A DNA stretch of 64,000 nt. Origin: Comamonas sp. (lineage in GTDB: Bacteria; Pseudomonadota; Gammaproteobacteria; Burkholderiales; Burkholderiaceae_C). The stretch spans positions 1 through 64,000 of the forward strand of contig JAJPEQ010000013.1 of assembly GCA_021166775.1 (NCBI GenBank), written 5' to 3'. The position numbers and the translations under genes are program-made. A model generated the notes under the pieces. That model was given only the letters and a program-made list of their open reading frames with translations, searched no databases and had not been told where the DNA came from. This document shows positions 9,634 through 54,470 of the stretch, piece by piece. The first letter of the stretch is position 1. Every line of letters begins with the position of its first letter.

Positions 9634-9720
9634 AATAGCTGATTGCGCTTGACGACATTTTATTTCGAATACATTTGTATTCGAAACCGTTATATTTAAA
9701 GCGCGAACAGCTATCATTTG
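9634..9720. repeat. Inverted pair of dispersed-repeat half-sites flanking a palindrome (thiD / permease convergent junction)
   Basis: AATAGCTGATTGCGCTT ... TTTCGAATAC-ATTT-GTATTCGAAA ... AAGCGCGAACAGCTAT; outer arms are inverted copies of one motif. Confidence 0.85.
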
Positions 9721-10991
9721 AATGAGCCCCGACTCAGCCACGCGAGTCCGAAACAGAGCACGAGCGTGGGCAGCGCCGATCCACCCAGCGCAGGAGCCAG
9801 GCGCGGCAGCAGGTGATAGAAGGCGATGCCGGCGAGCCAGATCAGCGTGGCGCCCCAGTGGATGCTGCCGGCCTCGCGCAGCAGTTGCCGCGTGGGCGCG
9901 CCGAAGGCCAGACGCCCGAGGATGACGCCAAAAAGTGGCACGAACACCGAGCTGAGCAGCAGCAGGAAGGGCTCCAGGCTGTGCATGGGCAGGACCAGCG
10001 CAAACGCGGTGCAGGCCAGCACCATCAGCACGCCCCAGCGGCGGATGCTCCAGCGCGGCAGCAGGCTGTGCATGCAGACCGAGCCCGAGTAGGCGTCGCC
10101 GTAGGTGTTGTCGATCTCGTCGATCAGGATCAGCGAGAGCGCGATCAACCCGCCCTGGGCCAGCAGCAGCGCGGTGACGAGGTCTTCGCTGGGCAGCACG
10201 AGCGCGACGAGCACGCCCAGGCCGTAGCACCAGATGTTGGCCACCGCGTAGCCGAGCCAGGTGCCGTGCAGGGCCGAGCGACCGTCCTTGCCGTGGCGCG
10301 CGTAGTCGGCCACCAGCGGCAGCCACGACACGGGCATGGCGATCACGAGATCGATGGCCGACAGCGTGCTCATGCTGCCGTCGCCGCCGCGGCCCCACAG
10401 TGGCGCCAGTCCCTGCGTCTGCGCCAGCGTGGCAAATTGCCAGCTCAGCCACAGCAGCGACAGCACCACCAGGGGCAGTGCGATGCGCGCGATCAGCCGG
10501 CGCACGAGTTGCACCATGGAGCCGCTGATGAGCAGCAGCACCACGGCGCCCCACATGAGCGTGGCGAGCACGGGCCAGTACCCGGCGGTCAACCCGCCCG
10601 ACTGCCGGCCGATGGCGACGGTGGCGTCGCGCATGATGACCAGCTCGAACGCCCCCCAGCCCAGCAGCTGGAGAACATTGAGCACGATGGGCAGTCCGGC
10701 GAACCGGCGCCCGTAGACCGCGTGCATGAGCCCGGCGCTGGCCAGGCCGCTGTCGCACCCGAGCTTGCCGACCCAGCCGAGCAGCCCCGAGCCGACGATG
10801 GAGCCGATGGCGATGGCCACCAGCGCTTCGCCCGGACTCAGCCCCGGCAGGAGGTAAGCGCCCATCTGCATCACAAGCAGGCCTACGCCCAGGCTGAACC
10901 ACAGCGAGGTGTGGTCGCGCCAGCCGAAGGCGCGCTGACCTTCGTGCAGCGGCGTCAGGGCTTCGTTGGTGGCGGGTTGATTGGTGCTCAC
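9714..10991 (-). CDS. cytX: NCS1-family permease, CytX-like putative hydroxymethylpyrimidine transporter
   Basis: Multi-TM protein (WFSLGVGLLVMQMGAYLLPGLSPGEALVAIAIGSIVG); TPP riboswitch in leader. GTG start at 10991 with an AAGGAG-type RBS. Confidence 0.82.
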   Translation of the reverse strand: MSTNQPATNEALTPLHEGQRAFGWRDHTSLWFSLGVGLLVMQMGAYLLPGLSPGEALVAIAIGSIVGSGLLGWVGKLGCDSGLASAGLMHAVYGRRFAGLPIVLNVLQLLGWGAFELVIMRDATVAIGRQSGGLTAGYWPVLATLMWGAVVLLLISGSMVQLVRRLIARIALPLVVLSLLWLSWQFATLAQTQGLAPLWGRGGDGSMSTLSAIDLVIAMPVSWLPLVADYARHGKDGRSALHGTWLGYAVANIWCYGLGVLVALVLPSEDLVTALLLAQGGLIALSLILIDEIDNTYGDAYSGSVCMHSLLPRWSIRRWGVLMVLACTAFALVLPMHSLEPFLLLLSSVFVPLFGVILGRLAFGAPTRQLLREAGSIHWGATLIWLAGIAFYHLLPRLAPALGGSALPTLVLCFGLAWLSRGSFK

Positions 10992-11064
10992 GGCGTGTGC
11001 TCCTTGTACGTGCTCGTGGGTCGCAGCGTCAGGGAAGGTTGGCCAGGCGCCAACCAAAACGTGA

Positions 11065-11150
11065 GCGTGCTTCCCTGCGCGAGGATGATCTCAATCAGGT
11101 TCAGAGGGTTTTTCTCAGCCGGACGCACCGGCACCCCTAGCAGGCGGCAA
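11065..11150 (-). promoter_or_regulatory. TPP riboswitch (THI element) upstream of the CytX-like permease
   Basis: Minus strand: CTAGGGGTGCCGGTGCGTCCGGCTGAGAAAAACCCTCTGAACCTGATTGAGATCATCCTCGCGCAGGGAAGC. Confidence 0.95.
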
Positions 11151-11346
11151 TTGTAGGTGGGAGTTCGCAGCAGGGTGATTGGCGTTATCGGCGCAGGCCG
11201 GTCAGGCTTATCCGAAAACGGCAGCGGGAGGCGGCCATGCGTGCATCAATGGATCGGGCAGGGTCGGGCGGGCGCGCCGGCATGACGCAAGCGGGCGCCT
11301 GCGGGGCACGCCGGCTGCAGGGCGATTGCGGGGATGGTGGGCGCTC

Positions 11347-11676
11347 TCAGCGCTCGAGGTACTTGAGCTTGTCCCTCACGCCGTTCCATTCGTCGGCGTC
11401 GGGGAAGGCTTCGTGGCGTTTGGCGAGCGTCTTCCAGCCGGGGGCGTGGGTGAGTTCGGCGTTCAGGGCAATGAAATGCTGTTCATCGGCGGGCACGTCT
11501 TCTTCGGCGAAGATGGCATTAGCCGGGCACTCGGGCACGCAGACCGCGCAATCGATGCATTCATCCGGGTTGATCACCAGCATGTTGGGCCCTTCGACGA
11601 AGCAGTCGACGGGGCAGACATCCACACAGTCGGTGTATTTGCACTTGATGCAATTGTCGGAAACGACGTGGGTCAT
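11347..11676 (-). CDS. fdxA: 7Fe ferredoxin FdxA
   Basis: [26 protein letters not shown]...[21 protein letters not shown]. Confidence 0.96.
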
Positions 11677-11785
11677 GGCAGTACCAGCTACGAAAAACGA
11701 ATCAACCGGCTTATTTTAGGTGGCCCCCCGCGCGCATCGTGGCGCAGGCCATTTCAGCGCAATGGACAAAAGGGGCAATGCGGAT

Positions 11786-13066
11786 TCACCCCTGCGCCGC
11801 GCGCTTCCACGCGGCGCTCGCGGCCTCCTTGTCGCCGCGTTGTTCCGCAAGCTCGGCCAGGTGGAACCAGGCGCGGGCACGCAGCGTGGGCTCGGTCAGG
11901 CCCTGGCGGGCTTCGGCAAACGACTGCTCCGCCTTGCCCCACAGGGACAGGCGCATGCAGGCCACGCCCGCGAGGTAGTGCAGGCAGGGGTCACGCGGGT
12001 GCAGGCGTTGCTGCGCCTCGATCAGCCCAAGCCAGTGGTGATCCTGCTCGCCCAGGGTGGCTTCCAGCGCCAGGACCAGCTTGCGCGTCTGATGGCTCTG
12101 GAGTTCGCCGTACTGCTCCCACACGGGTTGCAGCCACAGCCGCGCCTGGTTGCTTGCGCCGCCCAGCTCGATCTGGTGGCTGGCCGCGCGGATGGCGACG
12201 TCGGGCATCCTGCGCTCGGCGGTTTCCAAGGCCTGCCAGGCAGCGCCCAGCTGGGCATCGTCGCGCGCTTCGTCCAGCAGCGCGATGGCGAGCGTGCGCA
12301 CCAGGGTGGTGGCGACCTCGGGTGAGAACGCGCGGTGTTTGGCCAGCAGGCGCGTGGTCTCCAGCGCGTCGCGCGTGCGTCCGGCCAGGCGCGCCGCCTT
12401 CAGGCGCGTGCGCAGGGCCAGCGTGCGCCGGCTGGCGCCTTGCGGCAGCGCGGCCAGGCGTTCCAGCGCGGCCTCTGCATCGCGATCATCGAGCAGCCAG
12501 CGGGCCGAGCGCAGCTGCACGCCCTCGCGCAGTTCCTGGCCGCTGCTGTCCGGGTGTTCGCCCAGCGCCTCCAGTGCCAGCGCGAGGTGCTCGGAGCGGC
12601 CGCTGCGGTCCTGCAGCGCGTGCGAGCTTTCCGCCGCGGCCACGTGGGCGAGGGTGCGCAGTTGCTGGCGGTGGGCAATGGCGGCATCGGTAAGGGCCAG
12701 GGCTTCTTCCTGCGCGAGGGCCTTGAGGGCCGATTTGCGTGCCCGCACGAAGCGCCCGGCCAGCAGCTGGGCCATGGCGTCGAGCATGGCGCCATGCATG
12801 GCGCGCTCTTTTTGCTGCAGGCGCCAGCGCCGTGCCTGACGTGGCAGCGCGCGCAAGGTGGACAGGCCGCGCAGCGCCGCATAGAACAGCGTGGTGCCGA
12901 TGAATATCAGCATCAGCACCATGTTCAGCGAGAGATCGACGCGCCAAGGTGGCCAGAAGATGGTGACCGTGCCCTGGTTGTTGCCGGCAAAAAGGGCAAT
13001 GGCCACGGCGATGCCGAACAGAGCCAGGAACCAGAGGGCAGCGCGCATGAACGTGTAGCCCCTCAA
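11786..13066 (-). CDS. hemY: Heme biosynthesis protein HemY (TPR)
   Basis: N-terminal TM plus ARRWRLQQKERAMHGAMLDAMAQLLAGRFVRARKSALKAL; follows hemX with ATGA overlap. Confidence 0.85.
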   Translation of the reverse strand: MRGYTFMRAALWFLALFGIAVAIALFAGNNQGTVTIFWPPWRVDLSLNMVLMLIFIGTTLFYAALRGLSTLRALPRQARRWRLQQKERAMHGAMLDAMAQLLAGRFVRARKSALKALAQEEALALTDAAIAHRQQLRTLAHVAAAESSHALQDRSGRSEHLALALEALGEHPDSSGQELREGVQLRSARWLLDDRDAEAALERLAALPQGASRRTLALRTRLKAARLAGRTRDALETTRLLAKHRAFSPEVATTLVRTLAIALLDEARDDAQLGAAWQALETAERRMPDVAIRAASHQIELGGASNQARLWLQPVWEQYGELQSHQTRKLVLALEATLGEQDHHWLGLIEAQQRLHPRDPCLHYLAGVACMRLSLWGKAEQSFAEARQGLTEPTLRARAWFHLAELAEQRGDKEAASAAWKRAAQG

Positions 13067-14163
13067 CGGCCGGCCGCGGCGGTGGCCAGCGCGGAGAGCG
13101 TGGCCGTGGGCTGAGGAATTTCGGTGGCGCGCATGTTGCTCTGCAGTTGCTGCAGCGCCGCCAGAAAATTCTGCGTGCGCCGCGCGTTGGCGTCGAAGTA
13201 TTTGGTGAAGCCGCGCTGCGCCGCGGCCAGCTCGGAGCGCGCCGTGTCCATGCGGCGCGCCAGGATGCTCAGGCGGGCATCGGCCAGTTGCAGCTTCAGG
13301 TTCTGGCGCAGGAAGTAGGCCTGATCGGGCGCCAGGAGCACGGCGTCTGGTCGGTCGATGCGACTGATGCGCACCAGGCCGAGAGCCTGGTCGCGCACTC
13401 CGTGCCAGACGGCGCGCAGCGCGGCCTGCCAGGCCGGTTCGCTCGCCGGGGTATCCGCGGACGCCGTGCGGGCCGCGGACGACGGCGGCCGCATGTCCGA
13501 GGGGTGCGCGACGGCGTTGGCCAGCGGCAGCTCGTCGATCTGGCGAGCCAAGTCATCGAGCCGACCCAGCAGACCGGCCGTGTCGGTGACGCTGGCACGC
13601 TCCAGCCTTTCGCTGTCCTGCTCCATGGCGCGCAGCACGGGCGCAAGCCGGGGCTGCGCGGCGCGCTCGATGCGCTGATGGGCGTTTTTTAGGGCCACCG
13701 TCAGGGGCTGCAGGCTGCCGGTGAGTTCGGCCTGCTGCTGGGCCAGGCGAATGCTCGCGTCCACATCGGCCACCAGACTTTCGTCACGGCTGCGCGAGAG
13801 GCTTTGGGTGAGCTCTTCGAGCTGGCTGCGTTGCAGCGCGACTTCGGCCACGCGTGACTCCATCACGCTCATGCGCGCGCTCGCATCGCGCGCCAGATCC
13901 TGTGCCTCGCGTGCCAGGGTGCGTGCCTCGGTGGCCTGTGTGCCCGAGTCGGCGCTCTGGCGCGCCAGCTGTTCCTGGATGTTGGACAGGCGCTGCCAGA
14001 GCATGGCCGAGGAGCCCAGCGCCGCCAGCGCGACGAAGGCGAGCACTCCAAGCAGCAGGTGATTGGCACCGCTGGTGACCACCGCGGGCGCCGTCGGCGC
14101 CGCGGGAGCCGGCGCCGGTGGCGCGGCCTCGCCGACGGTGGAAGAGAGGGGCTCAGTGCTCAT
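13063..14163 (-). CDS. hemX: HemX-family uroporphyrinogen-III C-methyltransferase-like protein
   Basis: Pro/Ala-rich N-terminus, single TM, coiled coil and YFLRQNLKLQLADARLSILARR; between hemD and hemY. Confidence 0.85.
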   Translation of the reverse strand: MSTEPLSSTVGEAAPPAPAPAAPTAPAVVTSGANHLLLGVLAFVALAALGSSAMLWQRLSNIQEQLARQSADSGTQATEARTLAREAQDLARDASARMSVMESRVAEVALQRSQLEELTQSLSRSRDESLVADVDASIRLAQQQAELTGSLQPLTVALKNAHQRIERAAQPRLAPVLRAMEQDSERLERASVTDTAGLLGRLDDLARQIDELPLANAVAHPSDMRPPSSAARTASADTPASEPAWQAALRAVWHGVRDQALGLVRISRIDRPDAVLLAPDQAYFLRQNLKLQLADARLSILARRMDTARSELAAAQRGFTKYFDANARRTQNFLAALQQLQSNMRATEIPQPTATLSALATAAAGR

Positions 14164-14965
14164 GCAGCGATTTTATAGACGAGACCACGTCCGTCAGCGC
14201 GGGACGGGCGCTGTGTACCTGCCCGAAGCCCGCATCCCGCGCGGCCTGGGCGATGCGCGGGTGGGTGGCGAGCGCATGGGCGCCGGACCAATCGTGCCCG
14301 GGCAGCCAGGCCAGAAGGTGCCCGATGGCCTCCTTGCTGCTGAAAAGCCACAGAAAGGCTCCCCCCGAGGCCGCGCGCGCCAACCGGGCCTGCTGTTCAT
14401 CCAGGACAGGTGCGCCGCGCTCGTAGCTGGCCACGAAGTCGACCTGCGCGCCCGCGCTTCGCAACTGCGTGGCCAGCCAGTCGCGCCCTTGCCCGCCCGG
14501 GCGGGCAGGCTCGTCGGTACCGCGCACGATGAGCACGCGGTCGCCGGGGCGCACCTGGGACGCCACCTGATGCCAGAGGGCTTCGGAATCGAATTGCCCG
14601 GCGTCCGGGGCGGGACCGTCGATCACCGCCGAGGCGACGCCGCTCGCCTGCAGCGCGCGCACCGTCCCCGGTCCTGGCGCCCAGCATCTCGTTTTGATAG
14701 CTTCCAGCGGTTGACTGGCAAGCGTTTGAGCCTTATTTTCCTCAAAGAAGTGACGCGCGGCATTGCCGCTGACAAACATCACGGCGCGGTAGTCTGCGCA
14801 TTGCATTCGGGCGTGTTGCAGCGCGGCTTGCAGCGCCGGATGGCTCAGGGGCCGGATGGCGATGAGTGGCAGGGCCTGGGCCGGGATGCCCTGCTGTTCG
14901 AGCAGGCTTACCCAGCGCGCGGCGTCCTGCGCGGCCCGTGTCACCAGCACCCGTGGCAAGGCCAT
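14153..14965 (-). CDS. hemD: Uroporphyrinogen-III synthase (contains an in-frame dispersed repeat)
   Basis: MALPRVLVTRAAQDAARWVSLLEQQG, AVMFVSGNAARHFF, RCWAPGPGTVRALQASGV, VLIVRGTD; adjacent to hemC. Confidence 0.92.
   Translation of the reverse strand: MALPRVLVTRAAQDAARWVSLLEQQGIPAQALPLIAIRPLSHPALQAALQHARMQCADYRAVMFVSGNAARHFFEENKAQTLASQPLEAIKTRCWAPGPGTVRALQASGVASAVIDGPAPDAGQFDSEALWHQVASQVRPGDRVLIVRGTDEPARPGGQGRDWLATQLRSAGAQVDFVASYERGAPVLDEQQARLARAASGGAFLWLFSSKEAIGHLLAWLPGHDWSGAHALATHPRIAQAARDAGFGQVHSARPALTDVVSSIKSLHEH
14692..14746 (+). repeat. Dispersed imperfect-palindromic repeat copy inside hemD
   Basis: TTTTGATAGCTTCCAGCGGTTGACTGGCAAGCGTTTGAGCCTTATTTTCCTCAAA; matches the copy at 45791 and the others. 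Confidence 0.85.
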
Positions 14966-14966
14966 G

Positions 14967-15905
14967 TCAGGCCCCGGGCTCCGCCACGGCGCCGTGGGTC
15001 TGCAACTGGGCTGCCACGCGCAAGCCCAGCGCATCGGCCTCCTGCAGCGTCGTGACCGTGGCTTCGCCGGCCGCGCGCACCAGCGGCGAGCGCCCCGAGA
15101 GGTCGCCCCAGGCGGCGGCCAGGCGCAAGGTCTGGCCCTGCCACTGCCCGTGTGCGGCCAGCGGCATGGAGCAGCTGCCGCCCATGGCGCGGCTCACCGC
15201 GCGCTCGGCCGTCACCGTGAGCCAGGTGCTCTGGTCGGCCAGCGGCGCAAGCCCTTGCAGCAGGTCCTGCCGGTCGGCGCGCACCTCGATGGCCAGCGCG
15301 CCTTGTCCAGCGGCGGGCAGCATCTGCTCGGGCTCGAAGGTGCTGCGAATGCGCTCGCCCAGGCCCAGGCGCTTGAGGCCCGCGGCCGCGAGCACGATGG
15401 CCGCGTACTGGCCTTCGTCGAGCTTGCGCAGCCGGGTGTTGACGTTGCCGCGCAGCGGCTCGATGCGCAGGTCGGGGCGCAGCGCATGCAGCAGCACCTG
15501 CCGGCGCAGGCTGGAGGTGCCCACCACCGCGCCTTGCGGCAGATCTTCCAGCCGGGCGTGGTGGGGCGAGACGAAGGCGTCGCGCGGGTCTTCACGCTGC
15601 ATCACGCACGCGAGCGCAAAGCCCTCGGGCAGCACCATGGGCACGTCCTTGAGCGAGTGCACCGCGATGTCGGCGCGGCCCTCTTGCAGCGCCACTTCCA
15701 GCTCCTTGATGAACAGGCCCTTGCCGCCGACCTTGGACAGCGTGCGGTCCAGAATCTGATCGCCGCGCGTGGTCATGCCCAGCAGCTCGATGCGGTGGCC
15801 GCGCTCCTGAAGCAGGGCCTGGACATGTCTGGCCTGCCAGAGGGCGAGCTGGCTTTCGCGGGTGGCGATGACGAGGGGTCGTTGGGCGGGATGCTGTGCG
15901 GTCAT
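14967..15905 (-). CDS. hemC: Hydroxymethylbilane synthase (porphobilinogen deaminase)
   Basis: [87 protein letters not shown]. Confidence 0.98.
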
Positions 15906-16024
15906 GACGCCATTGTGTCGCAGTGTGAAGGGCCCGCGCTGCTGTCACCCCAGAGACAGCCGTGGACTACACTGTGTGCATATTGCAATGCAGCATCTGC
16001 ATAACCCGCCCGCAACGTCAACCC

Positions 16025-18865: not shown

Positions 18866-19009
18866 GCCGCATTCGACACCCTCGGTGTGCGCGGGGCTTG
18901 CCTGTACTGCGCTGCATGCGCCTGAATCGGTCCACGAAGCGGGGGACAGGCAGGCAAAGAGGCTGGTATTGGATCGATTGCCGATGGCGCGGCTTTTTAT
19001 CATCTGGCC

Positions 19010-20130: not shown

Positions 20131-20143
20131 AGCCCGGCCGCGC

Positions 20144-20683: not shown

Positions 20684-20710
20684 GGTGTGCTTCTCCCCGG
20701 GTTGCCTGTC

Positions 20711-22422: not shown

Positions 22423-23042
22423 CCTCATCTGCACTTGTGGCCTCCGCCCATACCGACCGTACCGCGGAAGTCAGCCGCGACACCGCCGAGACGCGCGTGC
22501 GCGTGCGCGTGAATCTGGACGGCAGCGGCCAGGCGCGCCTGAACACCGGCATCGGCTTTTTCGATCACATGCTCGACCAGATCGCGCGCCACGGTCTCAT
22601 CGACCTGGAGGTGCAATGCGACGGCGACCTGCACATCGACGGCCACCACAGCGTGGAAGATGTGGGCATCACGCTCGGACAGGCGGTGGCGCGTGCGGTG
22701 GGCGACAAGAAGGGCCTGCGCCGCTACGGCCATGCCTATGTGCCGCTCGATGAGGCGCTCTCGCGCGTGGTGGTCGATTTTTCGGGGCGGCCCGGCCTGC
22801 ATCTGGATATGGCGTTCACCGCCGCCATGATCGGAGGCTTCGACACGCAACTGGTGCATGAATTTTTCCAGGGCTTCGTCAACCACGCCGGGGTGACGCT
22901 GCACATCGACAACCTCAAGGGCACGAACGCGCACCACCAGTGCGAGACGGCGTTCAAGGCGTTTGCCCGTGCCATGCGCGCGGCCTTGGAGATTGATCCG
23001 CGTGCCAGTGGCGTGATTCCATCCACCAAGGGCACTCTGTAA
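22419..23042 (+). CDS. hisB: Imidazoleglycerol-phosphate dehydratase
   Basis: [54 protein letters not shown]. Confidence 0.97.
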
Positions 23043-23045
23043 GCA

Positions 23046-23098
23046 AAATTGGTCTCCAACGCTTGCTGGGCAAGCGTGAGCAGCTATGCAATCAAAAG
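23046..23098 (-). repeat. Dispersed repeat copy spanning the hisB-hisH junction and hisH start
   Basis: Minus strand: TTTTGATTGCATAGCTGCTCACGCTTGCCCAGCAAGCGTTGGAGACCAATTTT. Confidence 0.85.
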
Positions 23099-23754: not shown

Positions 23755-23802
23755 CGTTCAACCTGGTCGGTCCACCCCGGACCCTGCCGTCATTCCTCGA
23801 CC

Positions 23803-24543: not shown

Positions 24544-24557
24544 GAGCAGCGCCCCCT

Positions 24558-25901
24558 TCAATCCCCGTCGGGCGCAACGAGCGCGTCGCGCCATTGGCAG
24601 ACGGCGATGTCGCTCGCGTCGCTGCTGCTCGCGATCCGCGGCCAGCGCGTGGTCACCGTGTTGGCAATCGACTGCAGCTGCCACATCGCCTCGCGCACCA
24701 GAAACAGCATTTCCTTGAGCCCTTGCGTGTCGTCTTGCAGCAGGGGGATCAGCTCACCCTGTTGCTCGGGATGACAACCGGCATCGAACAGGCTGCGTTG
24801 CAGGGCCTGGATGCGCTGCGTGATGAAGACCGATGCCTGCCCCGAGTCGCCTTGCGCATCGGGAGGGGCTTGCGGTTCCGGCTGGAGCTGGCTCCAGTGG
24901 GCCAGCGCCCTCTCGATCTGTGCGCTGATGTGCTGCACCTGCTGCAGATCGTTGGCATTGCCGGTCTGGATGTTGTTGGCCGGCAGGATGGGTAGCAGCA
25001 ACTGCGCCAGATCGGCGGGAAATTTGTGGTGACCCAGACGCAAGGTGAGCGAGAGGCGCACGGCCGCGCCGTCATTGGCGTATTTTTCGAAGAAGGCCGC
25101 CACCACTTCCGCCAGCAGCAGCACCTGCCCCAGGGGTGAGATCTGCGTGGCGCGAGTGCCGCGCGGATAACCGCTGCCGTCCATGCGCTCGTGGTGTTCG
25201 AGGATGGCGACCGCCACCGAGCGCGGATAGACCTCGCAGGCGTTGACCAATTGCGCCGCGATGATCGGGTGCTTGGCCAGCTGTTCGCGCTCGGGCCCCG
25301 TGAGCTTTCTGGTGCTGTCCAGCCAGACGGGATCAATGTGCAGTGTGCCGATGTCGTGCAGCAGGCCAGCCGCCGCCAGGCTCGTGCATTCGCCCTTGCT
25401 CCAGTTGGCCCGAGCTCCGAGATAGATCGCCACCAGCGCCACGTGCATGGCGTGGGTGTACTGTTCGGGAAATTGTTCGCGCATGACGCTGAGCATGAAC
25501 GCCAGCGGCCTGGGCAGGCTCATGGCCTGCAGTGGTGCCACCAGTGCTGAGGTGGGAATGGCATTCCTGCCGTCTTGCGCCAACAGGTGCAGCAGCGGCT
25601 CGTGCTGGCACTGCTCGCGTGCCAGCTCGACCAGCGAGGAGGTGCTCACGAGGTCTTCGATCGTCAGCAGCTCCTCCAGGGGGGCGCGCAAGTCGTGGCG
25701 GGCCAGCCGCCAGTACATGTCCTGGTTCAGGCGCACGCCGCCTTCCACCAACTTGATGCCCGTGTTCGTGAAGACGGCCTTTGCCGTCGACACTGCCCGG
25801 CGTTCGCACACCGCGAGGATGGCGCGCTGGTAGTGTGTCGGCGCCCACGTGTTCTCGGGATCTGGTGCGTCAGGAATTTCAGGTGCGGCGCTGGTAACCA
25901 T
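24558..25901 (-). CDS. HD-GYP-type domain protein
   Basis: LLHDIGTLHIDP and ILEHHERMDGSGYPRGTRATQISPLGQVLLLAEVVAAFFE. Confidence 0.8.
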   Translation of the reverse strand: MVTSAAPEIPDAPDPENTWAPTHYQRAILAVCERRAVSTAKAVFTNTGIKLVEGGVRLNQDMYWRLARHDLRAPLEELLTIEDLVSTSSLVELAREQCQHEPLLHLLAQDGRNAIPTSALVAPLQAMSLPRPLAFMLSVMREQFPEQYTHAMHVALVAIYLGARANWSKGECTSLAAAGLLHDIGTLHIDPVWLDSTRKLTGPEREQLAKHPIIAAQLVNACEVYPRSVAVAILEHHERMDGSGYPRGTRATQISPLGQVLLLAEVVAAFFEKYANDGAAVRLSLTLRLGHHKFPADLAQLLLPILPANNIQTGNANDLQQVQHISAQIERALAHWSQLQPEPQAPPDAQGDSGQASVFITQRIQALQRSLFDAGCHPEQQGELIPLLQDDTQGLKEMLFLVREAMWQLQSIANTVTTRWPRIASSSDASDIAVCQWRDALVAPDGD

Positions 25902-26017: not shown

Positions 26018-26797
26018 ATGCTTGCCAAACGCATCATTCCATGCCTTGACGTGACGGGCGGTCGCGTGGTCAAGGGCGTCAATTTCGTCGAACTGCGCGA
26101 TGCGGGCGATCCGGTCGAAATCGCGGCGCGCTACAACGAGCAGGGCGCCGATGAACTCACCTTCCTGGACATCACGGCCACGAGCGACGAGCGCGACCTC
26201 ATTTTGCCCATCATCGAGGCCGTGGCCAGCCAGGTCTTCATCCCGCTGACCGTGGGCGGCGGCGTGCGCAGCGTGGCGGATGTGCGCCGCCTGCTCAATG
26301 CCGGAGCGGACAAGACGAGCTTCAACTCGGCCGCCATTTCCAATCCGGACGTGATCAGCGATGCCTCGGCCAGATACGGCGCGCAATGCATCGTCGTGGC
26401 GATCGACGCCAAGCGCCGGCAGGGTGCCGATGCGACTGCGCGTGGCGAGGGCTGGGACGTGTACAGCCATGGCGGGCGCAAGAACACCGGGCTGGATGCC
26501 GTGGCGTGGGCCATCGAGATGACGCGGCGCGGCGCGGGGGAGATTTTGCTCACCAGCATGGATCGCGACGGGACCAGATCCGGTTTTGATCTGGCGCTGA
26601 CGCGGGCGGTCAGCGATGCGGTCGAAGTGCCCGTGATTGCCTCAGGTGGCGTGGGCACCCTCGACCATCTGGCCGACGGCGTGACCATAGGCGGTGCGGA
26701 TGCCGTGCTGGCGGCGAGCATCTTCCACTACGGTGAGTTCACGGTCAGGCAGGCCAAGGAGCACCTGCAATCGCGCGGGATCCCCGTGCGCCTGTGA
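26018..26797 (+). CDS. hisF: Imidazole glycerol phosphate synthase subunit HisF
   Basis: [72 protein letters not shown]. Confidence 0.98.
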
Positions 26798-26863
26798 ATT
26801 TGAATGAAATACTGGCTTGACGCCCGCCAAACATGCGCAGCCAGCTCCTGAATGAATAGTAAC
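26797..26863 (-). repeat. Dispersed repeat copy between hisF and hisI
   Basis: Minus strand: ATTCAGGAGCTGGCTGCGCATGTTTGGCGGGCGTCAAGCCAGTATTTCATTCAAAT; closest to the copy at 49640. Confidence 0.8.
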
Positions 26864-40432: not shown

Positions 40433-43198
<2,766 letters not shown>

Positions 43199-43213
43199 CA
43201 GGAGGAGCACCCC

Positions 43214-44443
<1,230 letters not shown>

Positions 44444-44497
44444 ATAAGTAGCGGCTTGCGCTTGTCCAGTGCGGGCTGCAAGCCGAAATGACTGATA
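44444..44497 (+). repeat. Degenerate dispersed repeat copy between argJ and the DUF815 gene
   Basis: AATAAGTAGCGGCTTGCGCTTGTCCAGTGCGGGCTGCAAGCCGAAATGACTG partly matches the repeat consensus. Confidence 0.6.
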
Positions 44498-45360
44498 AAC
44501 TGGATCTTCTCATAGCGCGTGCCGACAACCTGATCGCACGCATCGAAGCCATCCTTCCCAAACCCCTGGGCGCCCCCGATTGGGCGGCTTCGATCGCCTG
44601 GCGCTACCGGCGGCGTGCCAGCGGCGGCAGCCTGCTTGCGCCAGTGCGCCACGTGGCGAACCTGAAGCTGGCCGATCTCAAGGAGATCGAGCCGCAGAAG
44701 GAGAAGATCCGCCGCAACACCGAGCAGTTCGTCGCGGGCAAGCCCGCCAACAACGTGCTGCTCACCGGCGCGCGCGGCACGGGCAAGTCCTCGCTCATCA
44801 AGGCCTGCCTGAACGCCTATGCGCCGCAGGGTCTGCGCCTGATCGAGGTGGACAAGAGCGACCTCACCGATCTGCCCGATATCGTGGATGTGGTGGCGCA
44901 GCGCCCCGAGAAGTTCATCGTCTTCTGCGACGACCTGAGCTTTGACGAGGGCGAGCCGGGCTACAAGGCGCTCAAATCCATCCTCGATGGTTCGGTGGCG
45001 GCCGCCACGCCGAACGTGCTGATCTACGCGACGAGCAATCGGCGTCACCTGCTGCCCGAATACATGAAGGAAAACCTCAGCTACACGCACACCGACGATG
45101 GCGAGGTGCATCCGGGCGAGGTGGTCGAGGAAAAAATTTCGCTCTCCGAGCGTTTCGGCCTGTGGGTGAGTTTTTATCCCTTCAATCAGGACGAATACCT
45201 TGCGATCACCGCACAGTGGCTTGCGCACTTCAACGTGGCGCCTGCCGCCATCGAAGCGGCGCGGCCCGAGGCGCTGCTGTGGGCGCTGGAGCGCGGCTCG
45301 CGCAGCGGGCGCGTGGCCTACCAGTTCGCCCGCGACTACGCGGGGCGTGCCGCCTCATGA
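44488..45360 (+). CDS. DUF815-family AAA ATP-binding protein
   Basis: NVLLTGARGTGKSSLIKACL (Walker A), FIVFCDDLSFDEGEPGYKALKSILDG, VLIYATSNRRHLLPEYM. Confidence 0.92.
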   Translation: MTDKLDLLIARADNLIARIEAILPKPLGAPDWAASIAWRYRRRASGGSLLAPVRHVANLKLADLKEIEPQKEKIRRNTEQFVAGKPANNVLLTGARGTGKSSLIKACLNAYAPQGLRLIEVDKSDLTDLPDIVDVVAQRPEKFIVFCDDLSFDEGEPGYKALKSILDGSVAAATPNVLIYATSNRRHLLPEYMKENLSYTHTDDGEVHPGEVVEEKISLSERFGLWVSFYPFNQDEYLAITAQWLAHFNVAPAAIEAARPEALLWALERGSRSGRVAYQFARDYAGRAAS

Positions 45361-45785: not shown

Positions 45786-45790
45786 CACTC

Positions 45791-45849
45791 ATTTTTAAAT
45801 AGCTTCCAGCGCTTTCTGGTATTGTGCTTGAGGCCGATTTCTTTTGAAT
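45791..45849 (+). repeat. Dispersed repeat copy between mutT and yacG
   Basis: ATTTTTAAATAGCTTCCAGCGCTTTCTGGTATTGTGCTTGAGGCCGATTTCTTTTGAAT. Confidence 0.8.
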
Positions 45850-46071
45850 TCAGGGCTGCTGCTTCGGGTCGCCGAAAGGTGCATCTTCTGGCGGGATGTC
45901 GCTAGGCACGCGAAAATCCTCGGCCGCCCAGGCCCCCAGGTCGATCTGCTTGCAACGTTCGCTGCAAAACGGTCGGTAACGGTTGCCGGGGGCGAACAGG
46001 CTGGGCTGGCCGCAGGTGGGACAGGGCACGGTGATGGGCGCAGCGGGAGCGCCTTCGGGCGATTCAGTCAT
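45850..46071 (-). CDS. yacG: DNA gyrase inhibitor YacG (zinc-binding)
   Basis: [42 protein letters not shown]. Confidence 0.93.
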
Positions 46072-46148
46072 AAGCAAAGCAGAAAAAAGTCGTTGGCTAC
46101 CTGGATTGTCGGCAAGACAATACCCGGTTCGGCCGGGTCGATGAAAAC

Positions 46149-48181: not shown

Positions 48182-48198
48182 GAAAGGGTGGGCACGCG

Positions 48199-48363
48199 AT
48201 GAAATCAGGTCTGCTGCGCACCGTCTTCTGGGTGCTGTTCGCCGCTTTCCTCGCGTGGGACTATGCGGCTTCGCCTGCGGTGGATCTGCGCTGGGAACTG
48301 GCGCCGATCTCGGCCGGGTCGGGCCAGGCCACCCGGGGCGGGCACTGCTCCATGCCCGACTGA
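48199..48363 (+). CDS. 54-aa putative membrane microprotein
   Basis: MKSGLLRTVFWVLFAAFLAWDYAASPAVDLRWELAPISAGSGQATRGGHCSMPD; starts 18 nt after the permease stop with a plausible RBS (agaaagggtg). Confidence 0.55.
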   Translation: MKSGLLRTVFWVLFAAFLAWDYAASPAVDLRWELAPISAGSGQATRGGHCSMPD

Positions 48364-48373
48364 GACAGCGCAA

Positions 48374-48398
48374 CGAGGTCGGTCGAGGGCCGACCTCG
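48374..48398. terminator. Putative bidirectional hairpin between convergent genes (no U tract)
   Basis: CGAGGTCGG-tcgaggg-CCGACCTCG perfect 9-bp stem. Confidence 0.45.
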
Positions 48399-48404
48399 CA
48401 AGGC

Positions 48405-48731
48405 TCAGGCCTGGATGGTTTCCAGCAGCGTCTTGAGCTCGCCCGACTCGTACATTTCCATCATGATGTCGGCGCCGCCGACCAGCTCGCCCTTGACGTA
48501 GAGCTGCGGGATCGTCGGCCAGTTGCTGTATTCCTTCACACCCTGGCGGATCTCGTCGTCATCGAGCACATTGACCGTGGCCAGCTGGTCCAGATCCACG
48601 TTCAGTGCCTTGAGGATCTGCACCGCGCGGCCGGAGAAACCGCACATGGGGAAATGGGCGTCGCCCTTCATGAAAAGAAGGATGTCGTTGTTCTTGACCA
48701 GTTGGTCGATGCGTTGCTGGACGTCGCTCAT
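48405..48731 (-). CDS. grxD: Monothiol glutaredoxin, Grx4 family
   Basis: MSDVQQRIDQLVKNNDILLFMKGDAHFPMCGFSGRAVQILKA...YSNWPTIPQLYVKGELVGGADI. Confidence 0.97.
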   Translation of the reverse strand: MSDVQQRIDQLVKNNDILLFMKGDAHFPMCGFSGRAVQILKALNVDLDQLATVNVLDDDEIRQGVKEYSNWPTIPQLYVKGELVGGADIMMEMYESGELKTLLETIQA

Positions 48732-48778
48732 CGGGATACTCCTGAAATCAGTGCCGCCCATGCCGGGCGGGGTGTGGA

Positions 48779-49639
48779 TTATTTCACCATCGGCCCGCCA
48801 TCGGTGGGGTTTCGGGGTATTGCCCCGCCGCTGCATCGGACAATACCCGCGAGGTCCTTGCGGCTTTGTACCTGTGTGAACCCTTGGGCCGACAGCAGGG
48901 CACGTACTGTGGCAGCCTGATCATGCCCGTGCTCCAGCAGTAGCCAGCCGCCGGGCGGCAGGTGCGCAGGGGCCTGCGCAATGATGCTGCGGATCGCCTC
49001 CAGCCCGTCGGCGCCGCTGGTGAGCGCCATGCGCGGCTCGTGGCCGAGCGCCGTCAGGTGTGGGTCGCCTTCGGCGATGTAGGGCGGGTTGCTCACGATC
49101 AGGTCAAAGCGCCCGCCGCCCAGCCCCTGCAGCCAGTCGCCCTGCTGCAGCCGGATGGGCAGGCCCAGGCGTGCGGCATTGTGGCGCGCCACCTCCAGTG
49201 CCTCCGGGCTCTTGTCGACGGCGGTCACGAGAGCGTCCGGGCGCTGCGCCTGCAGGGCCAGCGCGATCGCGCCGCTGCCCGTGCCCAGGTCGGCGATGCG
49301 GGGCGCGGTCAGCGGCGCCGCGATTTCAAGCGCCCAATCCACCAGTGTCTCGGTGTCGGGGCGGGGATCGAGCACGCTGGCGTTGATGTCCAGATCCAGC
49401 CCGTAAAACGCCTTGCGTCCCACGAGATAGGCGATGGGCTCGCCCGCCAGGCGCCGTTCGCAACAGGCATTGAAGCTGTCCAGGGCCTCGGGTGGCAGCG
49501 GTTCATCGTCGTGCGCGAGCAGCCAGGCCCGGTCATGCGGCACGCGGCCCAAGGCGTGCAACAGCAGCATCTGCGCGTCGATGCGCGCGAGGCCTTTGTC
49601 TTGCGCCCCGGCCAGCGCCTGCCTCAGGGTGATGTTCAT
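48779..49639 (-). CDS. prmC: Peptide chain release factor N(5)-glutamine methyltransferase
   Basis: GRKAFYGLDLDINASVLDPRPDTETLVDWAL, IADLGTGSGAIALAL, DLIVSNPPYIAEGDPHL. Start taken at MNITLRQAL. Confidence 0.95.
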   Translation of the reverse strand: MNITLRQALAGAQDKGLARIDAQMLLLHALGRVPHDRAWLLAHDDEPLPPEALDSFNACCERRLAGEPIAYLVGRKAFYGLDLDINASVLDPRPDTETLVDWALEIAAPLTAPRIADLGTGSGAIALALQAQRPDALVTAVDKSPEALEVARHNAARLGLPIRLQQGDWLQGLGGGRFDLIVSNPPYIAEGDPHLTALGHEPRMALTSGADGLEAIRSIIAQAPAHLPPGGWLLLEHGHDQAATVRALLSAQGFTQVQSRKDLAGIVRCSGGAIPRNPTDGGPMVK

Positions 49640-49696
49640 CAATTCAGGAGCTGCTTGCGCTTGATGGGCAAGCGATTGAGCCAAATTTCATTCATA
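49640..49696 (+). repeat. Dispersed repeat copy upstream of prmC
   Basis: TCAATTCAGGAGCTGCTTGCGCTTGATGGGCAAGCGATTGAGCCAAATTTCATTCAT. Confidence 0.85.
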
Positions 49697-49764
49697 TCTT
49701 CCAGACCACGGGCACCCACCCCCAACCCTCCCGGCGGGAGGGGGGCGGATACCGCCGACACCAC

Positions 49765-50844
49765 TCAAACCTCCTCCAGCTGCGCCAGCAGCTCCGCCTC
49801 GTGTGCGTGCTGCAGCGCGTCGAGCACCTCGCCGAGGTCGCCGTCCATCACCATCTGCAGCTTGTAGAGCGTGAGGTTGATGCGGTGATCCGTCAGGCGC
49901 CCCTGCGGGAAGTTGTAGGTGCGGATGCGGTCTGAACGATCGCCGCTGCCCACCAGGCCTTTCCTGAGGGTGGCTTCCCTGGCGGCGCGCTCGCTGCGCT
50001 CCTTTTCCTGAAGCCGCGCCTGCAGCACGCGCAGCGCCTGCGCCTTGTTGGCGTGCTGGCTGCGTCCGTCCTGACATTCGGCCACGATGCCGGTGGGCAG
50101 GTGCACCACGCGCACCGCCGAATCGGTCTTGTTGATGTGCTGCCCGCCCGCGCCGCTGGCGCGAAAGGTGTCGATGCGCAGCTCGGCCGGGTTGAGCGTG
50201 ATGGCCTCGTGCTCGTCGGGTTCGGGCATCACCGCCACCGTGCAGGCGCTGGTGTGGATGCGCCCCTGTGTTTCGGTGACCGGCACGCGCTGCACGCGAT
50301 GCCCGCCCGATTCAAAGCGCAGGCGGCCGAAGACCTGCTCGCCCTCGACGCGCAGTACCACCTCCTTGTAGCCGCCCAGCTCGCTTTCGTGCGCGCTCAT
50401 CACCTCCACGCGCCAGCCCACGTTGGCGGCGTAGCGCGTGTACATGCGGGCGAGGTCGGCGGCGAACAGCGCGGATTCATCACCGCCCGTGCCCGCGCGG
50501 ATTTCGACGAAGGCGTTGCGCGCATCCTGGGGGTCCTTGGGCAGCAGCAGACGCTGCAGCTCGCCCTCCAAGTGGACCAGTTCGGCCTGCGCGCTGCTGA
50601 TCTCCTCCTGCGCCATCCCGGCCATGTCGGGGTCGGCGAGCAGCTCTTGCGCGGCGGCCAGATCGCGCTCGCGCTGCTGCCAGCGCGCCCAGCGCTGGGC
50701 CACTGCCGCCACCTCGGTGTGCTCGCGCGACAGCGCCATGAACTTGGCCATGTCGGCCATCACGTCGGGCTGGGCGAGAAGGAAGTCGAGTTCGGACAAC
50801 CGTTCAGCATGGCGAGCCAGACGCTCGCGGAGAAATTGTTGCAT
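49765..50844 (-). CDS. prfA: Peptide chain release factor 1
   Basis: [68 protein letters not shown] (GGQ). Start taken at [12 protein letters not shown]. Confidence 0.97.
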
Positions 50845-51091
50845 CACGGCCCAATTGTCGCTGTCTTTCTTGAGGGAGTTGACCCGTCCTGACCAGTGTT
50901 GGCACCTGGAATCGCCCCGCGTTTCCGGGAGGCTGGCTGCTTTGAGTTGAGCCGGCGGTCTCGGTCTGCAAAGCGAGCTGGCGCCAGTCGTTTGTCTCAG
51001 TCTCGGCCGACGGGATGCGCCCAATGGGTTCGAGCAGTTGGGCGGGATGGACATGGCTGTCTCCCTTGCTGCCCCCGAAGGTTGATGCCGG

Positions 51092-51265
51092 ATGTCCTAT
51101 CCCGACGTGGTGCGCGAGCTGCTGCAGTTGCCGCGCGGCGAGCTCGTGGTGTGCGGCATGGCCCTGGCGTGGCCCGATCCGCAGGCGCCGGTCAACGGCG
51201 CCCGCACGCCACGCCTGCCCTGGCCGACTATCTCACGGTACTTGAGTGACGAGCGTTGGCTCATC
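51092..51265 (+). pseudogene. Nitroreductase C-terminal remnant
   Basis: [50 protein letters not shown] resembles nitroreductase C-termini; an in-frame TGA lies 9 nt upstream and no N-terminal domain is visible. Confidence 0.65.
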
Positions 51266-51949
51266 GGTGGTGGCGGCACCTGCCGGATGAGTCCACTGCC
51301 AGAGCAGGTGCGCCACCTCGGTCACCCCCTGTTTCTTCAGCGCGGAGAACAGCCGCACCTCGCCCCCGCCGGCCTGTAGCCGTACGATGGAAAGGGCCTT
51401 GGCCTGCTCCGCGCGGGCGAGCTTGTCCGCCTTGGTCAGCAGCACCAGGAACCGCAGCCCCGCCTGGACACGCGGGCGCAGCGCATCGAGCAGGGCTTCG
51501 TCGAGTTCCGTCAGGCCCAGGCGCGGATCGCACAGCAGCACGAAGGCCGAGAGGCTTTCCCGTTGCACCAGGTAGTTGAGCATCACCCGCTGCCAGCGCA
51601 GCTTGTCTTCGCGCGACACCGCCGCGTAGCCGTAGCCCGGCAGGTCGGCGAGCACCGCGTCCGTCACGCCTTGCTTGCCCAGCGCAAACAGGTTGATGTG
51701 CTGCGTGCGGCCGGGCTTCTTGGAAGCGAAGGCGAGCTGACGCTGTTGGGTGAGCGTGTTGATCGCCGTGGATTTGCCCGCGTTGGAACGCCCGACGAAA
51801 GCGATTTCGGGCACGGTGACCGTGGGCAGCTGGTTCAGGGTCGACGCCGTCGTCAAAAAGCGCGCCGTATGCATCCAGGCCAGGGCCGCGCGGTCTTCGG
51901 AGGTCGGCGATGAGGGCGCTGCGGAGGCTGGTGCGGGGGTCTGGGACAT
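51233..51949 (-). CDS. engB: Ribosome biogenesis GTP-binding protein YihA/YsxC (EngB)
   Basis: EIAFVGRSNAGKSTAINTLTQQRQLAFASKKPGRTQHINLF, ADLPGYGYAAVSRE, LLTKADKL. Confidence 0.96.
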   Translation of the reverse strand: MSQTPAPASAAPSSPTSEDRAALAWMHTARFLTTASTLNQLPTVTVPEIAFVGRSNAGKSTAINTLTQQRQLAFASKKPGRTQHINLFALGKQGVTDAVLADLPGYGYAAVSREDKLRWQRVMLNYLVQRESLSAFVLLCDPRLGLTELDEALLDALRPRVQAGLRFLVLLTKADKLARAEQAKALSIVRLQAGGGEVRLFSALKKQGVTEVAHLLWQWTHPAGAATTDEPTLVTQVP

Positions 51950-52024
51950 GAGGCGCGTCGTTTGGGGATGATCGACATTGTAGAATCCGAGGGTTTTTGC
52001 GCCCATAACTTCAAATTCGTCGCC

Positions 52025-52645
52025 ATGAAGCTGATCGCCTCCCTGATGATGCCTGCCGCGCTGGCGGTTGTCGCTGTTACTGCATTTGCGGCCGATGCGC
52101 CTGCCAAACCGGATCTGGCCAAGGGCGAGGCGACCTACTCCGGCGTGTGCGCGGCATGCCATGGCGCCGGTGGCAATTCGGAGGTACCCAACTATCCGGT
52201 GCTGGCGCAGCAATTCCCGGGGTATCTGGTCAAGCAGCTGCAGGAATTCAAGAGCGGCAAGCGTGAAGACGCGGTGATGCAGGGCATGGCCGCCACGCTT
52301 GATGATGAAGGCGTGCGCGATGTGTCGGCCTGGTTGGGCACACAAAAAGCGAAAAATGGTGTCGCCCAGAGCAAGGATCTGGCGGCGGTGGGCGAATCCA
52401 TCTACCGCGGCGGTGCGCAAGACCGCGGGATTGCCGCATGCGCTGGCTGCCACAGCCCCAATGGGGCGGGCGTGCCCGTGCAGTTCCCGCGTCTGGCGGG
52501 CCAGCATCAGGAATACACGGTCAAGCAGCTGTCCGATTTCAGGGGTGGCAAGCGCACGAACAGTACGGTCATGCATGACGAGGTCAAGTACCTGACCGAC
52601 CACGAAATCCAGGGCCTGGCCGATTACATCGCCGGTTTGCGCTGA
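52025..52645 (+). CDS. Diheme cytochrome c4
   Basis: Signal peptide plus two CxxCH motifs ([10 protein letters not shown] and [10 protein letters not shown]). Confidence 0.93.
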
Positions 52646-52766
52646 AATCGGGGCGCGTGCGGAACACGCGCAGACGAATCGTCATCCAATTCGGGCGGGC
52701 TGCTTGTTCAGGCACCCGCCCGTACTCTTGTGCGCCTCGCGGCGCATGCATGCTGGAGAGCGCACC

Positions 52767-53762
52767 ATGTCTGCATTGCGTGACACGAATCGCTTCGACC
52801 ATCCTGTTCCTAGCGAGATCACCCCAGCCGGCGTCTACGCGCGTCGACGCGAATACCTGCGGATCATGGCCGCAGGCGCCGGGGGAGCCCTGCTTGCGGC
52901 CTGGGCCCAGCGCTCGGCTCATGGGCAAGGGGCGTCATCAGGCTCGCTCGCTCGGCTGGCAGGGCAGCCGTCGAAGGTGGAAGCCGCCATGACCATGGAG
53001 CAGCCCACCAGCTACCAGGATGCGACGCATTACAACAATTTCTACGAATTCGGTTCCGACAAGGCCGATCCGGCAGCGCATGCCTCCGCGCTCAAGACGA
53101 GTCCGTGGAAGCTGGAGGTGAGTGGTCTCGTCAGCAAGCCTCAGACCTTCGACATCGATGATCTGCTCAAACTTAGCCCACTCGAGGACCGAATCTACCG
53201 GCTGCGCTGTGTGGAGGGCTGGTCCATGGTGATTCCTTGGGTGGGCTACTCGCTGTCGGCGCTGATCGAGCGCGTTCAGCCCCAGGGCAGTGCCAAGTAC
53301 GTGCAGTTCGAGTCGCTGGCCGACAAGGCGACCATGCCTGGTGTGCGCTCCAGCATCCTGCAATGGCCCTATACCGAGGGTCTGCGGCTGGATGAAGCCA
53401 TGCATCCGCTGACCTTGCTGACTTTCGGCATGTATGGCCGGGTGTTGCCCAACCAGAACGGAGCGCCGGTGCGCGTGGTGGTGCCGTGGAAATATGGCTT
53501 CAAGAGCGCCAAGAGCATCGTGCGCATGCGCCTGGTGGAGAAAGAGCCGAGCACGGCCTGGAATATCGCGGCGCAGCATGAATACGGCTTCTACTCCAAT
53601 GTGAACCCCGATGTGCCGCATCCGCGCTGGAGCCAGGCGACCGAGCGGCGCATCGGAGAGGATGGCCTCTTTGCCAGACGCCGCAAGACGTTGCTCTTCA
53701 ACGGGTACGGCAACGAGGTGGCCCAGCTTTACGCCGGCATGGATCTGAAGAAGTATTTCTGA
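52767..53762 (+). CDS. msrP: Periplasmic methionine sulfoxide reductase, molybdopterin subunit
   Basis: Tat-type [54 protein letters not shown]. Confidence 0.96.
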
Positions 53763-54412
53763 TGCCCAAGCCGCGGCCGATGCGCGCGGGCTGGCTGCTG
53801 CACCCGTCTGCCAAGGTGCTGTTGTTCACCCTGTGCCTGCTGCCTTTGGCGTGGCTGGTCTTTGGTGCGGCCACGGGCGGCCTGGGCGCCAATCCGGCGG
53901 AGAAATTGATCCGCTCGACGGGCGACTGGACGCTGCGCCTGTTGTGCTTCACGCTGGCCATCACGCCACTGCGCAAACTGCTGGGTGTGCAGCAGCTCGC
54001 GCGGTTTCGCCGCATGCTGGGTCTGTTCACTTTCAGCTACGCCCTGCTGCATTTGCTGTGCTATGCGGGATTTGACATGGGGCTGGATGCGCGCGCCATC
54101 GTGCTGGATATCGCTCAGCGGCCGTTCATCCTCGTGGGCGCAAGCACCTTTGCCTTGTTGCTGGCGCTCGCCATCACGTCTTTCCAGCCCTTCCTGCGCT
54201 GGCTCGGTGGTCGCCGCTGGCAGGCGCTGCATCGGCTGGTGTATCTGTGCGCCGTGCTCGCCCTGCTGCATTTTTTCTGGATGCGTGCGGGCAAGCGCGA
54301 TTTCGCGGAGGTGTTCGTTTACACCACCATCATCGCCATCCTGCTGATGGCGCGGGTCATGCTGCGTTGGCGTCTCGCCGGCCCCGGAAAAGCGCCTGCG
54401 CACATGTTATGA
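53762..54412 (+). CDS. msrQ: Heme-binding membrane subunit MsrQ
   Basis: NPAEKLIRSTGDWTLRLLCFTLAITPLRKL, RMLGLFTFSYALLHLLCY, LHRLVYLCAVLALLHFFWM; overlaps msrP. Confidence 0.95.
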   Translation: MPKPRPMRAGWLLHPSAKVLLFTLCLLPLAWLVFGAATGGLGANPAEKLIRSTGDWTLRLLCFTLAITPLRKLLGVQQLARFRRMLGLFTFSYALLHLLCYAGFDMGLDARAIVLDIAQRPFILVGASTFALLLALAITSFQPFLRWLGGRRWQALHRLVYLCAVLALLHFFWMRAGKRDFAEVFVYTTIIAILLMARVMLRWRLAGPGKAPAHML

Positions 54413-54470
54413 AAACGATAGTGGCTAACGCTTGATGGCAAAGCGCCATAGCCATTTTTGTTCAAATTCT
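54412..54470 (+). repeat. Dispersed repeat copy between msrQ and lysA
   Basis: AAAACGATAGTGGCTAACGCTTGATGGCAAAGCGCCATAGCCATTTTTGTTCAAATTCT. Confidence 0.8.

What the first reader, a model, noticed from the sequence alone, without database searches (positions are those of the whole stretch)
9634..54470. Dispersed family of ~55-60 bp imperfect-palindromic repeats at gene boundaries (at least 8 loci)
Reoriented to one strand, these align by eye: 14692 TTTTGATAGCTTCCAGCGGTTGACTGGCAAGCGTTTGAGCC; 23098(-) TGCATAGCTGCTCACGCTTGCCCAGCAAGCGTTGGAGACCAATTTT; 45791 TTAAATAGCTTCCAGCGCTTTCTGGTATTGTGCTTGAGGCCGATTT; 49640 TCAGGAGCTGCTTGCGCTTGATGGGCAAGCGATTGAGCCAAATTTCATTC; 54412 CGATAGTGGCTAACGCTTGATGGCAAAGCGCCATAGCCATTTTTG; 26863(-) TCAGGAGCTGGCTGCGCATGTTTGGCGGGCGTCAAGCCAGTATTTCATTC; plus 44444 and the 9634-9720 pair. 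The shared core is AGCTxSxxxCGCTTGxxxxGCAAGCGxTxGAGCC, with CGCTTG/CAAGCG able to form a small hairpin. Copies sit in short intergenic spaces in both orientations. I recall similar elements in Comamonadaceae genomes, but not a described function or name.
Basis: partly seen in the sequence, partly recalled or inferred. Interest (0 to 1): 0.7.

Follow-up and report, generated by a model that had tools for sequence, protein, structure and literature searches.

The report
Ancient hairpin repeats between Comamonadaceae genes
Hundreds of copies of a 64-base hairpin-forming DNA element sit in the tiny gaps between genes of this Comamonas-like bacterium and its relatives; unlike ordinary jumping repeats they have hardly moved since these species split, which suggests that the cell keeps them for a purpose still unknown.

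Summary
In detail: all eight sites carry one element family. It is about 64 bp: CTMY, an A/T tract, RTAGCT, a stem-loop (GCGCTTG-N5-CAAGCG), GAGSC, ATTT..AAAT. A matrix scan finds about one copy per 6.5-9.5 kb (none in a reversed-sequence control), an extrapolated 300-450 per genome. It occurs in 45 of 126 sampled genera of this family and in none of 16 other families of the order. Copies are single, in both orientations, and often fill the whole stop-to-start gap. At argJ/zapE a 4-bp gene overlap in element-free relatives corresponds to a 44-63 bp element-bearing gap in carriers. In same-genus comparisons 250 of 271 sites keep the element in the same orientation; core bases stay conserved, other positions drift, stem pairs covary. 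No two copies in a genome sample exceed 78% identity. Complete element-rich genomes lack a Y1/RAYT transposase. A few copies lie in frame in hemD, aroE, mutS and selO without lengthening the protein. Best reading: an ancient REP-like element, now vertically inherited and functionally retained, probably as DNA-level hairpin sites. It resembles GTAG-REPs but differs in tag, arms, singleton state, missing transposase and very low turnover. The function is inferred, not shown.

The parts
9624..9722 (+). Variant copy between thiD (+) and a permease gene (-): left half ATAGCTGATTGCGCTTGA and an inverted left half, with a second palindrome (TTTCGAATACATTTGTATTCGAAA) in the loop
   Evidence: PWM 20.6, CM 15.1/12.4 bits; fold -32.5 kcal/mol
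14686..14749 (+). Copy inside hemD (gene on - strand, element antisense, in frame)
   Evidence: PWM 67.5, CM 61.7 bits; hemD by Pfam HEM4; same site in most relatives tested
23035..23098 (-). Copy filling the hisB/hisH gap; its end contributes to the hisH start codon region (AGCTATG)
   Evidence: PWM 59.6; same place and orientation in the genus
26796..26859 (-). Diverged copy filling the hisF/hisI gap
   Evidence: PWM 39.6, CM 20.9 bits; orthologous copies in the genus, 2-bp gap in G003
44437..44500 (+). Diverged copy filling the 44-bp argJ/zapE gap
   Evidence: PWM 40.5; orthologous copies across several genera, ATGA overlap in element-free relatives
45788..45851 (+). Copy at the NUDIX/yacG convergent junction
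   Evidence: PWM 59.6; orthologous copies across genera
49636..49699 (+). Copy in the prfA/prmC gap (genes on - strand)
   Evidence: CM 62 bits, PWM 68.9; also in L062 and L065
54407..54470 (+). Copy filling the gap between the ferric-reductase-like gene (+) and the lysA-like decarboxylase gene (-)
   Evidence: CM 42.9 bits, PWM 49.6; flanking genes by Pfam

Best explanation
A clade-specific, REP-like family of about 64-bp single elements: CT(A/C)Y 5' end, A/T tract, RTAG tag, imperfect hairpin, ATTT..AAAT tail. It spread into gene junctions, and into a few variable protein loops, in an ancestor of part of the Comamonadaceae (inferred from shared positions). The mobilising enzyme was probably an HUH/Y1-type single-strand transposase (inferred by analogy with RTAG-hairpin substrates); none is detectable in the complete element-rich genomes examined. 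The copies are now inherited vertically and kept under purifying selection (positional retention, core conservation and stem covariation are shown; selection is the inference from them). The same unpaired bases (RTAGCT, ATTT) are conserved whichever way the neighbouring genes run, copies are commoner in convergent and co-directional than divergent gaps, and some lie inside genes. I therefore infer action mainly at DNA level, as hairpin/cruciform binding sites near transcription-unit ends, working like BIME/REP sites, rather than as terminators. The binding partner is unknown.
For: Family reality and copy number. Hairpin: covariation at 17-39, 18-38, 23-33, 24-32 and stronger folding than column-permuted copies. 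Insertion into tight junctions. Retention 250/271 and 25/26, core 0.82 against 0.50 at variable positions; core 0.72-0.76 against 0.28-0.39 in ortholog groups across genera. No recent copies: closest pair 0.78. G-T over A-C mismatches 2:1 in the element's own orientation, also in antisense copies (31:17). Low GC3 kept in coding copies. Density 0.86/0.79/0.41 per kb in convergent, co-directional and divergent gaps. Clade limit. REP analogy: tag plus hairpin, CT cleavage site, placement, intragenic copies (PMC8266576, PMC3733652).
Against: No binding partner or functional assay. First tag base is mostly A (82%), not G. Coding copies show no length increase, which a plain insertion mechanism does not explain. 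Gene conversion among copies could mimic core conservation. Some coding copies have decayed in several species, so constraint is weak there. The sense/antisense sample for the wobble test is small (18 and 26 copies).
Confidence: 0.5

Rival explanations
1. RNA-level element: the hairpin acts in the transcript as an intercistronic or 3'-end stabiliser or processing site, as proposed for many REPs.
For: Preference for co-directional and convergent gaps; stem covariation with G-T wobble; placement inside operons (hisB/hisH, argJ/zapE, prfA/prmC).
Against: Copies occur about equally in both orientations (18 sense, 26 antisense) while asymmetric unpaired bases stay conserved, and the G-T excess follows the element rather than the transcript; copies in divergent gaps and inside genes.
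Confidence: 0.25
2. Neutral fossil: a dead MITE/REP family that simply has not yet been lost; conservation reflects slow decay.
For: No recent copies, no transposase; graded decay at some sites.
Against: Core positions change far more slowly than variable positions at the same orthologous sites, and 93% of positions are retained at about 82% flank identity.
Confidence: 0.15
3. Actively transposing REP/REPIN mobilised by a resident RAYT.
For: RTAG-tagged hairpin resembles GTAG-REPs; Y1_Tnp genes exist in many genomes of the family.
Against: Complete element-rich genomes G007 and G008 have no Y1_Tnp hit, element-free genomes do; RAYT loci show no excess of nearby elements; no paired copies; no near-identical copies; near-zero turnover.
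Confidence: 0.04
4. DNA-uptake-like sequence maintained by transformation and molecular drive.
For: Length-neutral copies in coding loops and presence in both coding and intergenic DNA.
Against: Half-sites are not enriched outside full elements and no short over-represented word corresponds to it; density is low and the unit is 64 bp.
Confidence: 0.02
5. Intrinsic transcription terminators.
For: Hairpin with AT-rich ends, present in convergent gaps.
Against: No T-run after the stem (mean 0.94 T in 8 nt on +, 2.62 on -); copies inside operons and inside genes; of four copies in 44.3-55.0 kb only the 54.4 kb one was flagged terminator-like.
Confidence: 0.04

Closest known systems
GTAG-tagged REPs and the TnpA-REP/RAYT system (PMC3733652, PMC8266576, PMC2817692)
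   Same: Tetranucleotide tag next to an imperfect hairpin, a CT dinucleotide upstream, hundreds of copies, mostly extragenic, uni-directional and convergent gaps preferred, occasional copies inside genes.
   Different: Tag is RTAG with A in 82% (published GTAG families vary at positions 2 and 3), unit about 64 bp with AT-rich arms, always single, no cognate transposase in element-rich complete genomes, positions conserved over species and genera, length-neutral coding copies.
REPINs/BIMEs
   Same: Dispersed hairpin repeats; possible DNA-level role (from general knowledge BIMEs bind gyrase and IHF).
   Different: No paired or inverted doublets: no neighbours within 300 bp in any sample.
Rickettsia palindromic elements (RPE)
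   Same: Palindromic repeats found in frame inside protein genes (summarised in PMC3733652).
   Different: Coding copies here do not lengthen the protein and most copies are extragenic.
Beta-proteobacterial repeat element, BRE (PMC3110155)
   Same: Intergenic repeat reported from Bordetella and Comamonadaceae.
   Different: BRE is 75-91 bp, 69% GC, often tandem, with a few to 29 copies; this element is about 64 bp, AT-rich at both ends, single, hundreds of copies and not found in other families. BRE's sequence itself was not available here.

Membership tests
REP (GTAG superfamily) | palindromic stem-loop with conserved pairing | tested here: met
   in-register covariation and folding
REP (GTAG superfamily) | GTAG tag beside the hairpin | tested here: not met
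   pos 9-12: A82/G15, T81/G17, A99, G100, i.e. mostly ATAG
REP (GTAG superfamily) | more than 100 copies, mainly extragenic | tested here: met
   at least 148 genome-wide; about 1 per 6.5-9.5 kb; intergenic excess
REP (GTAG superfamily) | associated RAYT/TnpA-REP gene | tested here: not met
   none in complete G007/G008; RAYT loci not enriched
REPIN/BIME | two or more REPs in inverted or alternating arrangement | tested here: not met
   no neighbouring copies within 300 bp
MITE | terminal inverted repeats | tested here: not met
   ends differ (CTMY..RTAG against ATTT..AAATT) and the left box does not pair
MITE | target-site duplication | tested here: inconclusive
   filled/empty sites do not fix the boundaries
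DNA uptake sequence (DUS/USS) | short core over-represented on its own | tested here: not met
BRE | 75-91 bp GC-rich unit, often tandem | tested here: not met
   size, AT-rich ends and singleton state; no direct sequence comparison possible
Intrinsic terminator | GC-rich hairpin directly followed by a T-run | tested here: not met
Any Rfam family | match above the curated threshold | tested here: not met

The most novel reading that the evidence does not exclude
A chromosome-wide set of several hundred 64-bp hairpin sites kept by selection at fixed positions over many genera and recognised by an unknown clade-specific factor; it entered coding loops by length-neutral replacement (for example single-strand annealing or template switching) rather than by ordinary insertion.
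Probability: 0.3. Interest if true: 0.82.

Novelty: new variant of a known kind. Interest (0 to 1): 0.6.

Why it matters
REP-like repeats are usually seen as mobile genomic parasites with marginal functions. Here is a family with hundreds of copies, a clear boundary in the family tree, empty-site alleles, and very low turnover with core-specific constraint. That makes the question 'is a repeat family domesticated, and for what?' directly testable by comparing filled and empty orthologous junctions. The length-neutral in-frame copies in aroE, mutS, selO and hemD are not explained by known insertion mechanisms. In practice the element affects annotation: it supplies start or stop codons of neighbouring genes and lies inside the DUF1010 integron cassettes.

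Tried and rejected
Uptake-motif idea: half-sites are not enriched outside full elements. RAYT-driven REP: Y1 transposases absent from complete rich genomes, and RAYT loci not enriched in elements. Left box CTA..TAG as a second stem: no covariation, it is an A- or T-tract (whose script stopped with an index error after that test; the rest was rerun). Replication-strand or spacing pattern on the G008 chromosome: none. Carriage by phages or plasmids: no phage match, four weak plasmid matches, two viral contigs with the exact core. Rfam: nothing. Literature: no paper found that names the element in the open library. Third-base identity in coding copies was not raised except in hemD; only the low GC3 stands out. 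The count of copies 'inside genes' (32 of 102) is inflated by antisense shadow reading frames (seen), so only hemD, aroE, mutS and selO are claimed.
Full report
What was checked. A covariance model from 21 copies finds 148 matches in the window's own 2.9-Mb genome although only 150 candidates were scored. A 64-column position matrix gives 49 copies in 464 kb of the same contig, 22 in 200 kb of G008 and 31 in 200 kb of G007: one per 6.5-9.5 kb, roughly 300-450 per genome by extrapolation. The reversed sequences give none above 10 bits. Mean pairwise identity within a genome is about 0.5 and the closest pair reaches 0.78, so this is not a recently amplified repeat.

Anatomy. From 85 copies the conserved block runs from position -2 to 61. 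On 305 non-redundant copies it reads CTMY, an A- or T-tract, RTAGCT (A99 G100 C100), a stem GCGCTTG-N5-CAAGCG with outer pairs, GAGSC, ATTT, then ..AAATT. The variable stem pairs covary in register (17-39 z 3.3, 18-38 z 4.5, 23-33 z 3.7, 24-32 z 4.9); slid registers do not, apart from two neighbours explained by TT/AA runs. Predicted folding is stronger than with columns permuted across copies (-14.6 against -12.9 kcal/mol). G-T mismatches outnumber A-C two to one in the element's own orientation, including copies antisense to transcription (31:17). The left box does not pair.

Placement. With a simple home-made gene finder (88-89% coding), most copies in the own contig sample lie in gaps, often gaps of 39-75 bp that the element alone fills. 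Density per kb of intergenic DNA is 0.86 convergent, 0.79 co-directional, 0.41 divergent. Orientation is mixed, no two copies lie within 300 bp, and on the complete G008 chromosome there is no strand or spacing pattern. In the window, copies fill the hisB/hisH, hisF/hisI, argJ/zapE, prfA/prmC and ferric-reductase/lysA junctions; the copy at 14686-14749 is inside hemD.

Distribution. The element is abundant in most of the window's genus and in several other genera, patchy elsewhere in the family (50 of 150 genomes, 45 of 126 genera), and absent from the 16 sampled genomes of other families of the order. The genus includes Comamonas badia and Comamonas sp. SCN 67-35, judged from matching contig lengths. 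Among named genomes copies were seen in Comamonas, Acidovorax, Diaphorobacter, Giesbergeria, Simplicispira and Ottowia, and at times in Polaromonas, Rhodoferax and Hydrogenophaga; none was found in the named Ramlibacter, Variovorax, Caenimonas and Xenophilus loci examined.

Empty and filled sites. At argJ/zapE about 20 relatives have a 4-bp ATGA stop/start overlap, while carriers have TGA, then a 44-63 bp gap with the element, then ATG, always in one orientation. The NUDIX/yacG junction and a third syntenic junction behave alike. At hisF/hisI genome G003 has 2 bp where its relatives have about 60-85 bp with an element. So intergenic copies add DNA. A target duplication was not established.

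Retention. In same-genus comparisons 250 of 271 orthologous positions hold the element in the same orientation, and at least one apparent absence (own 49636 against G008) looks like an alignment offset, since an element-like sequence lies next to it. Own versus G007/G008: 25 of 26 retained at 82% flank identity, with core identity 0.82 against 0.50 at variable positions. In ortholog groups that span genera, interior core positions stay at 0.72-0.76 and variable positions fall to 0.28-0.39. A neutral relic would lose both equally. Sequences scoring below 8 bits were left out of that test; at argJ/zapE this removed four of 26.

Coding copies. hemD, aroE, mutS and selO carry the element in frame. 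Carriers and non-carriers have the same number of residues there: aroE 44 codons in almost every genome aligned, with or without the element; mutS and selO 75 in carriers and in several non-carriers; hemD within about three residues. Alignment with solved homologues from other lineages shows differences of only a few residues. A 20-residue insertion is therefore excluded at these sites. Third-codon GC falls to 0.43-0.64 in these stretches against 0.89-0.93 outside. Scores at one site range from near-consensus to decayed among relatives, so these copies are old. How a 60-bp element entered without changing length is unexplained; strand annealing or template switching is a guess.

Mechanism. REPs are palindromes preceded by a tetranucleotide, most often GTAG, cleaved by TnpA-REP at CT (PMC8266576), located mainly between uni-directional and convergent genes and sometimes inside genes, many of them for DNA repair (PMC3733652). 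Here the RTAG tag, upstream CT, mismatched hairpin, strand-specific wobble and placement match that plan. The membership tests for GTAG, for pairing into dimers and for a cognate transposase fail. I therefore file it as REP-like, not as a member of a described REP family. For the present role I favour DNA-level recognition, because asymmetric unpaired bases are conserved irrespective of transcription direction; this is inference.

Limits. Infernal calibration was short, gene calls are home-made, copy counts in genome searches are capped, part of the genomes are anonymous, and most of the comparison rests on one genus and one syntenic 20-kb region.

Noticed in passing
L414:1352-1690 and L416:1352-1740 (class 1 integrons on plasmids NZ_KY913898.1 and NZ_CP067036.1): The cassette ORF annotated DUF1010 (Pfam PF06231) overlaps a copy of this element: the cassettes carry a piece of Comamonadaceae-type DNA and the Pfam family may rest partly on a non-coding repeat.
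   Followed up: partly
L080, L088, L119, L140 (Variovorax), argJ/zapE junction: A different, GC-rich repeat (CCCCCGAGGGGGCGC...GGGCGGCCGGGCGG) sits in the very junction that holds the hairpin element in other genera, so this junction accepts unrelated repeats.
   Followed up: no
window 11055-11148 (-) and 9714-11057 (-): TPP riboswitch upstream of a cytosine/purine/thiamine-type permease gene next to thiD: probably a thiamine-precursor transporter.
   Followed up: no
window 9624-9722: The element here is expanded to a long hairpin whose loop contains a second, AT-rich palindrome; possibly another element nested in it.
   Followed up: partly
window 25138-25196 and 25346-25379: Short stretches of the - strand gene 24558-25793 recur at several other places in genomes of the genus; cause not examined.
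   Followed up: no
L031:1387-1890 (G000:C7:4955-5269): The genome's only Y1_Tnp-like gene (26.7 bits); its 3-kb surroundings hold no copy of this element, and its flanks look by eye like a different REP type.
   Followed up: partly
G003 (labelled same genus): Only 19 element hits and element-free his junctions, unlike the other eight genus genomes: a mis-assigned genome, a mixed bin or a lineage that lost the elements.
   Followed up: no
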